NCBI GenBank assembly: GCA_016188575.1
Contig: JACPHN010000106.1
Coordinates: forward strand, 1-15,694
Direction: 5' to 3'
DNA length: 15,694 nt
DNA from: Candidatus Schekmanbacteria bacterium
Lineage (GTDB): Bacteria > CSSED10-310 > JACPHN01
Shown: one piece after another, positions 1 through 9,512 of the stretch
How the letters are laid out: the number at the start of each line of letters is the position of its first letter
Position numbering within the stretch: position 1 is the stretch's first letter
Position numbers and translations under genes: made by a program
The notes under the pieces: generated by a model
Database searches by the model: none
What the model was told of the DNA's origin: nothing
The model's input: only the letters and a program-made list of their open reading frames with translations

Positions 1-42
1 CGGCGTCAGCGGCCGTTTGCGCTTGTCTAACACAAAAACCAT
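1..42 (-). CDS. iscB: IscB RNA-guided nuclease, N-terminal fragment (runs off left edge)
   Basis: Only 14 codons are inside the window, reading MVFVLDKRKRPLTP. This matches the start of IscB proteins, the RNA-guided HNH/RuvC nucleases ancestral to Cas9, whose N-terminal domain is named after the motif PLMP; here it reads PLTP. The start is supported by a good ribosome binding site, GGAGG on the minus strand (positions 52-48), 5 nt before the ATG. The long structured leader upstream is what an iscB gene should have. Catalytic domains cannot be checked because the RuvC, bridge helix and HNH regions lie off the window, so whether the gene is intact is unknown. Confidence 0.72.
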   Translation of the reverse strand, partial: MVFVLDKRKRPLTP

Positions 43-366
43 CGTTACCTCCAATACCTCCGAAGAGGTCCCCGTAAAGGGCTTGTGACGCCGCCAAGCG
101 GGCTTGCTCGATGGTCTCCCCTCGACCCTGTTGAACAGCAGCCGTCTGTGCACATCCGTTTCGTGCCGACCCTACGGTTTGTCTGCAATGCGCACTTACA
201 GAGTCCGAGGCTGAGGAAGCACCTCGGAATGTTACTTCTGCTGATTGTCCAACGCATCTGTTTCAACGATTGCCAATCTCAACAACTTGGCTGGTCAACA
301 TGCAAGCCTCGCGGCTTACGGCCTTCCACCGGAGCAAGCTCCGGCCTTCAGGCCGGGGCAGTTGAC
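43..366 (-). ncRNA. HEARO / omega RNA of IscB
   Basis: This roughly 320-nt non-coding leader sits directly upstream of iscB on the same strand. It starts with GTCAACTGCCCC and a hairpin CCGGCC-TGAA-GGCCGG (plus-strand 341-356, extendable to 339-358). That hairpin overlaps an alternative 7-bp stem at 329-344, so the two are mutually exclusive. Further in, the RNA has AAGCC-GCGA-GGCTT with a GNRA tetraloop (304-317), a 7-bp stem around 204-228, and ACCTC-TTCG-GAGGT with a UUCG tetraloop (56-69) just before the iscB ribosome binding site. Known: HEARO RNA lies upstream of IscB, binds it and carries the guide at its 5' end. Exact ends are estimated. No competing protein-coding explanation fits this stretch. 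Confidence 0.65.
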
Positions 367-382
367 GGCAGCATCTCATCCT
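367..382 (-). other. Predicted natural guide segment of the omega RNA
   Basis: The 16 nt 5' of the RNA scaffold on the minus strand read AGGATGAGATGCTGCC. In IscB systems the guide is the host DNA flanking the element at the omega-RNA end, so this should be the segment that programs the nuclease. It matches DNA just downstream of the CPBP protease gene. The exact boundary (plus or minus a few nt) and guide length are inferred from family knowledge, not from a mapped transcript. Confidence 0.45.
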
Positions 383-392
383 TCCTGATCAG

Positions 393-431
393 TTGAGCCT
401 TCCCGGCCGCCAACCCGGGAGTTGGGCTCAA
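393..431 (-). terminator. 3' hairpin of the CPBP gene, possible terminator
   Basis: TTGAGCC (393-399) pairs with GGCTCAA (425-431), and TCCCGG (401-406) pairs with CCGGGA (415-420). Together they give about 13 bp of stem with a small internal bulge and an 8-nt loop. The hairpin overlaps the CPBP stop codon (428-430). No U-tract follows on the minus strand, so it may stabilise the 3' end rather than act as a classical intrinsic terminator. Confidence 0.4.
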
Positions 432-1402
432 GCACTGGCAGCGTCAGGGCGAGCACCGCCGACAACAGCACCTGGGGCGCCTGCGGGCATGGGGCTACGA
501 TGGCGCAGCACGAGAGCTACCGGCCAGGTAGCAAGCAACACGAGCAAGCCGGCCAGGCCTGTCATGCCGATCAAGGTGTCATCGCCTCCCGCCGTCACGA
601 GCAAGGGCATGCCGGCACAAGCGTTCAGAGTGCCATGAAAAAACGTCGGCGCCACAAGTGTACGGGAAGCTTCCCGCAGGTAGCCCATTGGCACGGCGAG
701 AAGCACGCAAAACACTATCATCAAGATCACACCCTGCAACGGGTGGCGCGGATAGTTATGACCCTGCAGGATAAGCGGAACATGCCAAATACCCCACAGC
801 GCGCCGATGGTAGCGTGACGCCGCGTAAAGCTCATAGTCCCAAGCGCCTGGTGGAGATAGCCACGCCACCCAAGCTCCTCACCGAGAGCTGCAATTGAAT
901 TGACAGTCGCCCCGGCCAGGAGCGCTTGCGGTATTGACAGCCAAAACGGATGAATGGGAAGCGACGTAACCTGCGCTCTCGCTGCTGCGATCTGCTGCGG
1001 TGTGAGCATGTCATGTAACCGTTGAAACAACGCTTCCATGGTTGGATCGAAGGAAGTGCCGGGGAGGAGCAGGCCTACGCCCGTCGCGGCGACCGCCAGC
1101 ACCACGGGCCCGAGAAGCGCAGCGCCCAGCAGCCAGCTCCAGCGCCAGCGCAGAGCCAACGCATCGCGCCAGTTGCTGCCGTGCTGCCGGCGGGCGAGGA
1201 CAACGGCGACGATGCCGGGTATCCACATGTAGACGGGACCGACGACAATGGGGACGAGCCCTATCCAACGAAAGCCGGCGGCCCACACGACCGCGGCCAA
1301 TGCCCACGACAACACAACGGTGAGCGCATAAAACCGCGCTGCACGGCGGGCGGGCCGAATCAAATCATTGACTGGGGGCGTGTTTTCGGCTGGAAGCATC
1401 AT
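428..1402 (-). CDS. CPBP family intramembrane metalloprotease (CAAX/Abi type)
   Basis: A 324-aa multi-spanning membrane protein with about seven or eight hydrophobic segments. It carries the signature motifs of the CPBP (CAAX protease and bacteriocin-processing, Abi) family: EELGWR (E175, E176, R180), WGIWHVP (H207) and FFHGTLNA (H256, N260). These glutamates and histidines are the expected metal and catalytic site within the membrane. Family members include eukaryotic Rce1-type prenyl proteases and bacterial proteins linked to bacteriocin immunity or processing; the substrate here is unknown. The start is a double ATG (1402 or 1399) with only a weak GGTGG ribosome binding site. The Ala/Gly/Pro-rich tail after residue 305 is cytoplasmic-like. 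It is transcribed away from the amylase gene from its own promoter and has no partner gene that would suggest a bacteriocin role. Confidence 0.9.
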   Translation of the reverse strand: MMLPAENTPPVNDLIRPARRAARFYALTVVLSWALAAVVWAAGFRWIGLVPIVVGPVYMWIPGIVAVVLARRQHGSNWRDALALRWRWSWLLGAALLGPVVLAVAATGVGLLLPGTSFDPTMEALFQRLHDMLTPQQIAAARAQVTSLPIHPFWLSIPQALLAGATVNSIAALGEELGWRGYLHQALGTMSFTRRHATIGALWGIWHVPLILQGHNYPRHPLQGVILMIVFCVLLAVPMGYLREASRTLVAPTFFHGTLNACAGMPLLVTAGGDDTLIGMTGLAGLLVLLATWPVALVLRHRSPMPAGAPGAVVGGARPDAASA

Positions 1403-5885: not shown

Positions 5886-8800
5886 ATGACGACATTGCCG
5901 AACAGCCTCGGCCCGTACCGCCTTCTCGACGTGCTCGGTTCCGGCGGCATGGGCGTGGTGTATCGCGGGGTCCATCGGGATACGGGGCAGGTCGCGGCCA
6001 TCAAGACGGTGCGCTTGCCGCGCTCGGGAATCCTCGCGAGCCTGCGGCGCGAGATTCACGCGCTCTCCCGCCTGCGACACCCCGGGATAGTGCGGATCTT
6101 CCACCATGGGGTCGCCGACGGGCTGCCCTGGTATGCCATGGAGCTTCTCGAAGGCGAACGCCTCGATCACTATGCTCGCGTGCGCTTGCATCGGGCGACG
6201 GCTGCGGGAGATCGTGCCACCCTGGTGGCGGGAACCCAGGCGAGCGAAGGGGCTCCGCCGCCGACGTTCCTGTCGCAGACGCAAGATCGCTCCTCAGGCG
6301 AGGCGACCCTGGTCGAGGGCATGCGCAACCGCCACGAGGCAACCCTGTTCGGCCGCGAAGAGATGCTGCCGCCGCCGCCGCCGAAGGAGGACCAGGAGGA
6401 GCCGCCCCCGCTGCCGGTGAGCACGGCGGCGCCCGAGCCGCAGCACGCGATCCTGCCCGCCGCGGGGCTGCGGGCGGTGCTGTCGGTCCTGTGCCGCCTC
6501 TGCGAGGCGCTCGCATTCCTGCACGGCGAGGGGTTCGTGCACCGCGACCTGAAACCGGCCAACGTTCTCGTGCGCGCCGACGGGACGCCGGTCCTCGTGG
6601 ATTTCGGGCTGCTGGCGCGGTTCGGCGGCAAGGTGAGTCGCGAAGTCCTGCAGCCGCTCGCCGCCCTGGAGGGCACCCTGCCGTACATGTCTCCTGAGCA
6701 GATCGACGGCCGGGTGATCGATGCGCGCGCCGACCTGTATTCGCTCGGTTGCATGATCTACGAGCTCGTCACGGGGCGGCCGCCGTTTGTCTCCGAGGTC
6801 GCCATGCAGCTCATCGGGCAGCACCTCATGGGCAAGCCGGAGCCTCCGTCTGCCCTGGTTGGAGAGCTTCCCGAGGACCTGGAGCGTCTCACTCTCCGGC
6901 TCCTCGAAAAGGCGCCCGTGGATCGACCGGGGTACGCCGACGTCGTCGCTGCGGCACTGCGGGACCTCGGAGGTGGTGGCGCGCCCGCGCCCGCAGCACC
7001 GCCGGCGAGGCCGTATCTGCACCGGCCGGCGCTCGCGGGACGAGCGGACGCTCTCGAGCGGCTCGTCGCCTACCTCGACCCGCTCACGGAGGGCCGTGGC
7101 AATCTCGTATTCCTCGGCGGGGAAAGCGGCGTCGGCAAGACCCGGCTGGCGCTCGAGGTGGCCTGGGAAGCGCAAAAGAGGAACATTCGCGTGCTTTCGG
7201 GCGAGTGTCTGGGGGCGATCGAGAAGCCACTGGAGCCGTTCCTGCGACCGCTGCAAGCCCTGGCCGATGCTTGTCGCGAGGGTGGGGTGGACGAGACGAA
7301 CGCGGTGCTGGGAGAGCGCGGCAAGCTGCTCGCGGTCTACCAGCCGGCGCTGCTGGGGCTTCCCGGCCAGGCGGCATACGGGGAGCCGGCCGAGCTACCG
7401 TCGGCGGCGGCTCGCCTGCGTCTGGCCAAGGCGCTGATGGAATCGCTGGCGGCGCTGGGCAGGGCCAGACCGGTGCTGCTCATTCTGGACGACTTGCAAT
7501 GGGCGGACGAGCTCACCGCCTACGTGCTCGGGCATCTGTGGCGGACCCGGGCACTGCCGCGCGCGAACGTGCTCGTGCTCGCGCTGTTCCGCAGTGATGA
7601 AGAGAATCAGCGCCTGCGGAGTCTGATCGCGACCGCGGGTGCGACGGCGTTGCGACTCGATCGCATCGATTCCGGTGCGGTCAGCAGGGTCGTCCGCGAG
7701 ATGCTGGCGTTGCCGGCGCCGCCGCTCGGGCTGGGACAATTCCTGGCGCGGCATTCGGAAGGGAACCCGTTCTTTGTAGGCGAGTATTTGCGGGCGGCGG
7801 TCGAGGAAAGTCTGCTGTGGCGAGATCCGCAGGGCCATTGGCGCACGGCGGGCGGCGGTGCCGCCGAGGCCGACGAGACGGTCTTTGCGCGCTTACCGCT
7901 GCCGACCGTGTTGCAGGAGCTGGTTGCGCAGCGGCTGCACAGGCTGTCGGCCGACGAGGTGCGCCTTGTCTGGGCGGCGGGGCTGTGCGGGCGGGAAATT
8001 TCGGGGACGCTCTTGCGCGAGATCGCAAAGCTTGGCCTGGAGCGTTACTTCGAGTCGTTACAGACGCTGCTTCGCCGCGGCGTGTTCGAGGAGGCAGGGG
8101 ATGACCGCTTGCGCTTCACGCACGACAAGCTGCGTGCGGCGGCCCACGAGCTCATCCCGGTGCGCGAGCGGCCGCGCCTGCATCGCACCGTGGCGGAGAG
8201 CATCGAGCACCTATCTGAGGGCGACTCCGGGGACGTTCTGGGCGAGCTCGCATTTCACTGGGAAGCGGCGGGTGAGCGCTCCAAGGCTCGCCGGTACTAC
8301 CTCGAGGGCGCGCGGCACGCGAAGTCACGGTATGCCAATGAGGAGGCAGAGCGGCTCTACCGCGGCTACCTCGCTCTCGTCGAGGCGCCGACCGAAGAGA
8401 GCGTGGCGGTGCGCCGCGAGCTCGGTCTGGACGTGCTTTCACCGGCGGGACAGACGGCCGCGGCGATCGCCGAGCTGGAACGGTCACTTGCCGATGCCCG
8501 CCTGCTTGGTGACCGGCGCGGTGAGCTGCGGGCGCACACGGCGCTGGCCTTCGTGGGCTACGTAGCGGGAGAGCACACGCTGCTGTGGGACAACGCGGAG
8601 CAGGCGATCGACCTGGCGGGAACGCTGAATGATCCGGTGGAGCTGGCCCGCGCGGAGAATATCATGGGGATCGGGTGGGGCTATAGCGGTCGCTCGGACA
8701 AGGCGATCGCGCACTGCTCGCGAGCGGCGGCGATCGCCAAGGACCACGGGGATCAGGCGGCGCTGGCCATGTATCTGGGCAATGTTGCGCTCGAGCACAG

Positions 8801-9512
8801 CATTCTCGGCCACCATGAAAAAGCGCGCACGATGCTGCGCAAGGTGCTCAAGATTCACCGCGATGCCGGCGACCGGCACAAAGAGGCGACAGTGCTCACG
8901 AACCTGGCGAACGATTACTATGCGGCGGGGGAGCTGGACATGGCGTGCCGGCTGAGCGAACGGGCTGCCGAGCTGCACCGGCAGGTGGGTAATCGCGGAG
9001 CCGAGGCAGTGACGCTCAGCAATCTCGTAGACGTGCTGCTGGATCAGGGCCACCTGGGGCGAGCGCGGGCGCAGGTGCGCGAGGTGCTGGGTCTTTGCGC
9101 GGAGATCGGTGACCGGGTGCTCGAGGCGAGCTCGCTGTGCCGGCAGGCGCGGATCCGGCGGCACCGCAACCTGCTGCGCGAGGCGGAAGCGAGCATCGAC
9201 AAGGCCATGCAAACGCTGTCGACATCCGGCGCGGAGCTTACGACCGGTCTGTTTTTGTGCGAAAAAGGCCACCTTGCTCTGGCCATGGGGCGGTCCGCGG
9301 CGGCCGTGTTGGCACGCGCGAAGGAGCTTGCGGCGGCGTTGGGGTCAGGAGAAGAGAGCCTGCTCGGGGTGGGAGTAGCAAAACTGGCGCGCGCTCAGGA
9401 GGCGTTCGCGGCGGGCGAACGGGATCGCCTGTTGCGCGGCGAGCTGCTGGCGGAGATGCCGGAAGGGTTGCGACGCGTGCATTGCGGCGGCGGGAAGGCG
9501 AACGCGGAATGA
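5886..9512 (+). CDS. Ser/Thr protein kinase fused to AAA-type ATPase and TPR region (PknK-like)
   Basis: A 1208-aa cytoplasmic signalling protein. The kinase domain (about 10-360) is complete: GSGGMG loop (18-23), K40, helix C E56, HRDLKPAN (219-226), DFG (239-241) and GTLPYMSPE (263-271). Between the hinge (MELLEG) and the catalytic loop it holds an unusual insertion (about 101-185) with three ATL[V/F] motifs at T112, T141 and T153 and a Pro/Glu-rich run. An AAA_16-type ATPase follows, with Walker A GESGVGKT (412-419) and Walker B LLILDDLQWAD (531-541). From about 780 to 1190 there are tetratricopeptide-like helical repeats with about 40-residue spacing. Known: kinase-ATPase-TPR fusions of this type (PknK in mycobacteria, many in myxobacteria) couple phosphorylation to MalT-like signal sensing. 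There is no membrane segment, so input is probably intracellular. It is the last gene of the run. Confidence 0.93.
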   Translation: MTTLPNSLGPYRLLDVLGSGGMGVVYRGVHRDTGQVAAIKTVRLPRSGILASLRREIHALSRLRHPGIVRIFHHGVADGLPWYAMELLEGERLDHYARVRLHRATAAGDRATLVAGTQASEGAPPPTFLSQTQDRSSGEATLVEGMRNRHEATLFGREEMLPPPPPKEDQEEPPPLPVSTAAPEPQHAILPAAGLRAVLSVLCRLCEALAFLHGEGFVHRDLKPANVLVRADGTPVLVDFGLLARFGGKVSREVLQPLAALEGTLPYMSPEQIDGRVIDARADLYSLGCMIYELVTGRPPFVSEVAMQLIGQHLMGKPEPPSALVGELPEDLERLTLRLLEKAPVDRPGYADVVAAALRDLGGGGAPAPAAPPARPYLHRPALAGRADALERLVAYLDPLTEGRGNLVFLGGESGVGKTRLALEVAWEAQKRNIRVLSGECLGAIEKPLEPFLRPLQALADACREGGVDETNAVLGERGKLLAVYQPALLGLPGQAAYGEPAELPSAAARLRLAKALMESLAALGRARPVLLILDDLQWADELTAYVLGHLWRTRALPRANVLVLALFRSDEENQRLRSLIATAGATALRLDRIDSGAVSRVVREMLALPAPPLGLGQFLARHSEGNPFFVGEYLRAAVEESLLWRDPQGHWRTAGGGAAEADETVFARLPLPTVLQELVAQRLHRLSADEVRLVWAAGLCGREISGTLLREIAKLGLERYFESLQTLLRRGVFEEAGDDRLRFTHDKLRAAAHELIPVRERPRLHRTVAESIEHLSEGDSGDVLGELAFHWEAAGERSKARRYYLEGARHAKSRYANEEAERLYRGYLALVEAPTEESVAVRRELGLDVLSPAGQTAAAIAELERSLADARLLGDRRGELRAHTALAFVGYVAGEHTLLWDNAEQAIDLAGTLNDPVELARAENIMGIGWGYSGRSDKAIAHCSRAAAIAKDHGDQAALAMYLGNVALEHSILGHHEKARTMLRKVLKIHRDAGDRHKEATVLTNLANDYYAAGELDMACRLSERAAELHRQVGNRGAEAVTLSNLVDVLLDQGHLGRARAQVREVLGLCAEIGDRVLEASSLCRQARIRRHRNLLREAEASIDKAMQTLSTSGAELTTGLFLCEKGHLALAMGRSAAAVLARAKELAAALGSGEESLLGVGVAKLARAQEAFAAGERDRLLRGELLAEMPEGLRRVHCGGGKANAE

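What the first reader, a model, noticed from the sequence alone, without database searches (positions are those of the whole stretch)
1..366. IscB and its omega/HEARO RNA at the window edge
The leftward start MVFVLDKRKRPLTP with a GGAGG site, preceded by about 320 nt of non-coding, hairpin-rich leader opening with GTCAACTGCCCC, is the arrangement of an RNA-guided IscB nuclease locus. GNRA and UUCG tetraloop stems support a folded RNA. The motif reads PLTP in place of PLMP. An RNA-guided nuclease of the Cas9-ancestor lineage in this genome would be easy to miss, because only the RNA and 14 codons are here.
Basis: partly seen in the sequence, partly recalled or inferred. Interest (0 to 1): 0.75.

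Follow-up and report, generated by a model that had tools for sequence, protein, structure and literature searches.

The report
IscB transposon wedged before start codons
The window's left edge really is the guide-RNA gene and first 14 codons of IscB, a small RNA-guided nuclease of the Cas9-ancestor lineage, and its sister copies show that this jumping element settles exactly between a host gene's ribosome-binding site and its start codon.

Summary
Window 366-110 (minus) is a HEARO/omega RNA (73.8 bits, E 3.6e-15; just under Rfam's curated 83). The contig ends 14 codons into iscB. The same genome holds eight more near-identical copies; seven of its HEARO RNAs pass Rfam's cut-off, and intact iscB genes (446 aa, RRXRR + HNH domains) sit directly behind four of them. 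This is a new member of a known kind: an IS200/IS605-type IscB element without its own transposase. Its closest relatives are in Allochromatium (65%).

Following the copies to their right ends gave something less ordinary. The element ends exactly at ATGA (sometimes GTGA), and that ATG is usually the start codon of a host gene. The left flank, which is the RNA's guide, is usually that gene's Shine-Dalgarno region (10/15 versus 12% background). In this genome the right end carries its own GGAG just before the host ATG, and iscB's stop codon is the TGA of the host's ATGA. In Paraburkholderia, eleven sister genomes without the element show the empty site to the base. The ATGA/NTGA motif is known; I found no description of the start-codon habit in the papers held.

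The parts
1..42 (-). first 14 codons of iscB (MVFVLDKRKRPLTP), cut by the contig end
   Evidence: intact homologue in C90 of the same genome
43..57 (-). iscB ribosome-binding site (GGAGG) and spacer
   Evidence: direct reading
110..366 (-). HEARO/omega RNA; base 366 is the left end of the element
   Evidence: RF02033 73.8 bits, E 3.6e-15, model 1-211 of 211; homology between copies stops at 366
367..386 (-). host flank that would serve as the 5' guide (RNA sense AGGAAGGATGAGATGCTGCC); contains AGGA, a Shine-Dalgarno core
   Evidence: guide role by analogy with characterised IscB/IsrB
428..1402 (-). host gene upstream in the same orientation: CAAX-type (Rce1-like) membrane protease, 324 aa
   Evidence: PF02517 3.9e-12

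Best explanation
A mobile IscB element of about 1.67 kb: guide RNA (HEARO) first, iscB second, no transposase of its own. It is inserted with its left end after a host gene's Shine-Dalgarno region and its right end directly at that gene's (A/G)TGA start codon, in the gene's orientation. Shown: the RNA, the iscB family, the element ends, the repeated insertion at SD|ATGA, and one precise empty site without target duplication for a related element. Inferred: an IS200/IS605-type TnpA moves it in trans; the host promoter transcribes flank + omega RNA + iscB + host gene; the host flank becomes the guide; IscB cuts the empty allele (host SD region followed by the ATGA motif), so that repair from a sister copy restores the element; the host gene keeps being translated because the right end supplies GGAG and iscB's stop codon overlaps the host start codon.
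For: HEARO hit in the window; 15 HEARO hits in the genome, 7 over the cut-off; intact iscB behind it. Copies match from 1 to 1666 and diverge directly after, at GG|ATGA. Of 16 right ends, 12 have an ORF of at least 130 aa starting at that ATG (background 31%, p 4e-4), including glutamate-cysteine ligase, rhomboid, M50 peptidase, phosphonate-binding, SnoaL and DUF4386 proteins. SD core in 10/15 left flanks versus 11.8% background, p 9e-7; anti-SD pairing p 3e-6. Relatives in other phyla: UbiA, HisH-like amidotransferase, phosphomannomutase, peptidyl-tRNA hydrolase, prephenate dehydrogenase, AlgH and ThiF proteins start exactly at the right end; 28/45 with ORF >=100 aa versus 25%, p 1e-7. Public plasmid annotation puts the next CDS start exactly at the right end in 7 of 12 loci. 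Empty site exact to the base in 11 Paraburkholderia genomes. Characterised IsrB enzymes use NTGA/NTG target-adjacent motifs (PMC9581776).
Against: The window's own right end, downstream gene and most of iscB are not in the contig. Its HEARO scores 9 bits under the curated cut-off. The guide, cleavage and homing steps are not tested here. No TnpA was found inside these elements; the eight found in the genome lie elsewhere, several in what look like TnpB-type elements. Three of 16 right ends do not open a convincing ORF. Some copies are broken: the C5 79.6 kb copy has a stop and an internal deletion.
Confidence: 0.87

Rival explanations
1. The start-codon position is only survivorship: the transposase inserts at any TCAT/ATGA, insertions inside genes are lost by selection, and those before a start codon are simply the harmless ones. 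(This concerns how the pattern arises and is compatible with the anatomy in the best explanation.)
For: ATGA as target alone explains the sequence; IS200/IS605 elements are known to choose short target words. No sequence bias beyond ATGA and the SD signal was shown.
Against: By a rough estimate start-codon ATGA sites are 3-7% of all ATGA sites and 22-35% of those outside genes, against 12 of 15 observed (p 2e-6 to 6e-4 for the latter, rests on assumed gene density). The orientation matches the gene and the right end brings its own GGAG.
Confidence: 0.5
2. The element has been domesticated: IscB with host-derived guides regulates or protects the host genes it sits in.
For: Guides correspond to host ribosome-binding sites, and some iscB genes are intact.
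Against: Many copies are broken or lack iscB, positions vary, and the Paraburkholderia site is empty in 11 sister genomes, as expected of a mobile element.
Confidence: 0.07
3. A decayed HEARO remnant in front of an unrelated short frame.
For: Score below the curated cut-off; only 14 codons present.
Against: Copies with 90-97% identical RNA run into intact iscB with the same N-terminus; the 14 codons match the IscB start.
Confidence: 0.06

Closest known systems
IscB / HEARO-omega RNA elements (OMEGA family; Allochromatium and Cupriavidus iscB)
   Same: RNA then iscB, RRXRR (split RuvC) and HNH domains, HEARO 5' end at the element edge, CTCCCC-hairpin right end, right end abutting (A/G)TGA
   Different: 60-65% protein identity at best; in this genome the right end adds a GGAG before the host ATG and iscB stops on the target's own TGA
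DtIsrB and other IsrB nickases (PMC9581776)
   Same: omega RNA with 5' guide; NTGA/NTG target-adjacent motif 3' of the target
   Different: IsrB lacks the HNH domain that this IscB has
IS605-type elements with TnpA in the same genome (C154, C128, C160)
   Same: similar hairpin at one end (82-88% over 26-42 bases, weak E-values); possible source of TnpA
   Different: different ends and flanking target, carry tnpA, no HEARO

Membership tests
IscB/HEARO (OMEGA) element | HEARO/omega RNA upstream of the nuclease gene | tested here: met
   RF02033 E 3.6e-15 in the window; sister copies up to 92.4 bits
IscB/HEARO (OMEGA) element | nuclease with PLMP N-terminus, split RuvC (RRXRR) and HNH | tested here: met
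   in sister copy C90: RRXRR 3.2e-70, HNH 9e-12, PDB IscB chains 1e-50 to 1e-17
IscB/HEARO (OMEGA) element | the same nuclease complete in the window's own copy | not testable with these tools
   contig ends after codon 14
IscB/HEARO (OMEGA) element | RNA 5' end coincides with element end so that the guide is host flank | tested here: met
   copies diverge upstream of GTCAAC; empty site for a Paraburkholderia relative
IscB/HEARO (OMEGA) element | RNA-guided DNA cleavage next to a target-adjacent motif | not testable with these tools
   ATGA at nearly every right end is consistent; no enzyme assay
autonomous IS200/IS605 element | Y1 transposase TnpA inside the element | tested here: not met
   full element C90 is 1666 bp with iscB only; TnpA genes lie elsewhere

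The most novel reading that the evidence does not exclude
IscB elements are specialised start-codon transposons: they settle between Shine-Dalgarno and ATGA, use the host ribosome-binding site as guide and the start codon as target motif, borrow the host promoter, and give the host gene a replacement ribosome-binding site with a stop-start overlap, so that even essential genes can be occupied.
Probability: 0.5. Interest if true: 0.65.

Novelty: new member of a known kind. Interest (0 to 1): 0.42.

Why it matters
It explains where IscB guides come from in nature and why ATGA/NTGA is the motif: natural IscB guides here are host ribosome-binding sites. It also suggests how a nuclease-carrying element can sit in front of genes as important as peptidyl-tRNA hydrolase or glutamate-cysteine ligase without killing the host, and makes the homing model testable with defined empty and filled sites.

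Tried and rejected
Default Rfam scan gave no hit; a scan of the short stretch at relaxed threshold did. Closing the window's gap: five contigs end in a left end (C214, C69, C170, C172, C161) and five begin with a right end (C88, C152, C129, C150, C168), but nothing tells which is the window's partner; the upstream protease gave no close syntenic relative. Search for these ends around the genome's TnpA genes gave only a shared hairpin. First idea that iscB's own stop is always ATGA in all relatives was wrong: in most, iscB stops earlier and only the right end abuts ATGA. Covariation within the nine own copies is uninformative (96% identity, 2 compensatory pairs). Papers by Weinberg 2009, Kapitonov 2016 and Altae-Tran 2021 are not held; from memory, ATGA/GTGA integration of HEARO and an ATGA motif for an Allochromatium IscB may be stated there, so I do not claim that the motif is new.

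Full report
Observation. The leftward frame MVFVLDKRKRPLTP with GGAGG, and the structured leader beginning GTCAACTGCCCC at 366, are in the sequence as described. The default Rfam scan shows nothing, but the relaxed scan of the first 420 bases matches HEARO over the full model, 366-110 minus, 73.8 bits, E 3.6e-15. The next best family is at E 0.24. The window is contig C214 of a 9.2 Mb genome in 275 contigs and starts at base 1 of that contig: the gene is cut by the assembly, as expected for a repeat.

Sister copies. Window 1-366 has eight further long matches in the genome (90-97% identity), almost all stopping at base 366. HEARO has 15 hits, seven over the cut-off, none in 14 control genomes. 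Pfam RRXRR has 15 hits, with intact genes on C90, C5, C162 and C174. The C90 copy is RNA + 446-aa IscB, 1666 bp in all, RRXRR 3.2e-70 and HNH 9e-12; the nearest solved structures are IscB proteins. The best public relatives are Allochromatium IscB at 62-65%, then Cupriavidus, Pseudomonas, Polaromonas, Bacillota and cyanobacteria.

Right ends. Aligning copies shows that similarity ends at GG|ATGA. Fifteen pattern-found ends plus C90 were read. Twelve of 16 open an ORF of 130 aa or more at that ATG (background 31%, p 4e-4). Several are clear families: GCS2, Rhomboid, Peptidase_M50, Phosphonate-bd, SnoaL/DUF4440, DUF4386. One (C150) has the radical-SAM start three bases further on. The pattern used included ATGA and so favours it; the alignment of C90, C5 and C162, the ORF test and the left-flank test do not depend on that. 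In this genome the right end reads CCGGAGAYCGG|ATGA: a GGAG 5-6 bases before the host start, and iscB's last codon and TGA stop are completed by the host's ATGA.

Left flanks. The 15 flanks upstream of the HEARO 5' end carry AGGA, GGAG or GAGG 4-18 bases before the junction in 10 cases versus 11.8% of random positions (p 9e-7), and pair with the anti-Shine-Dalgarno sequence far better than background (p 3e-6). The window's own flank, ATCAGGAAGGATGAGATGCTGCC, is one of them. So the element splits host genes between ribosome-binding site and start codon.

Generality. In relatives, a CTCCCC-hairpin-GGTTTC-CGCGC right end is followed by (A/G)TGA, and the ORF starting there reaches 100 aa in 28 of 45 (background 25%, p 1e-7); the (A/G/T)TGA itself was part of the search pattern. 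Pfam shows UbiA, phosphomannomutase, GATase (HisH-like), peptidyl-tRNA hydrolase (GTG), prephenate dehydrogenase (GTG), AlgH, CDP-alcohol phosphatidyltransferase, ThiF and ImuB-like proteins starting at the junction. In 12 plasmid loci annotated by others, the next CDS starts exactly at the right end in seven, with 1- or 4-base overlaps with iscB in three. For Paraburkholderia nodosa, joining the two flanks gives a sequence found unbroken in eleven sister genomes at 88-95% over the stretch matched: CAGGACGTGAGCCTCAAC^ATGATTTCG; the element is 1679 bp, inserted exactly 5' of the start codon, without duplication.

Mechanism. Shown: RNA, gene, ends, target. By established knowledge, HEARO-type RNAs guide IscB/IsrB with a 5' guide from the flank and a motif 3' of the target; NTGA and NTG motifs are measured for IsrB (PMC9581776). 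Hence the natural target of each copy is host SD region + ATGA, which is the empty site. Inferred: homing after excision; trans mobilisation by TnpA (eight Y1 genes in the genome, none found inside these elements); transcription from the host promoter; rescue of host translation by the built-in GGAG and stop-start overlap. Whether start codons are chosen or only survive is open.

Novelty. The window holds an ordinary if truncated member of a known kind. The start-codon habit was not found in the papers searched, but the key founding papers are not held, so it may already be described.

Noticed in passing
G000:C177 88885-89328 (L040): A roughly 440-bp element with HEARO-like left end and GGATGA right end but almost no iscB, also between AGAGGTG and a start codon of a probable secreted protein: a miniature derivative.
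   Followed up: partly
G000:C162 118248-118883 (L015): IscB copy with an in-frame insert of about 35 residues (RSAEFRVLSTEKGQGQEEDPRLSSSSLSTRDSALSTC) in the RRXRR domain; part of it also occurs in the broken C5 copy.
   Followed up: no
G000:C157, C174, C117, C131, C201: A second HEARO/IscB subfamily opening GTCACC, with its own intact iscB on C174, coexists in the genome.
   Followed up: partly
window 5886-9512 (+): 1208-aa Ser/Thr protein kinase with AAA ATPase and TPR repeats, a large signalling protein.
   Followed up: no
L104 1993, 4408 and 6878: Three right ends of IscB elements within 5 kb in Allochromatium humboldtianum, each followed by ATGA: dense or repeated insertion.
   Followed up: no
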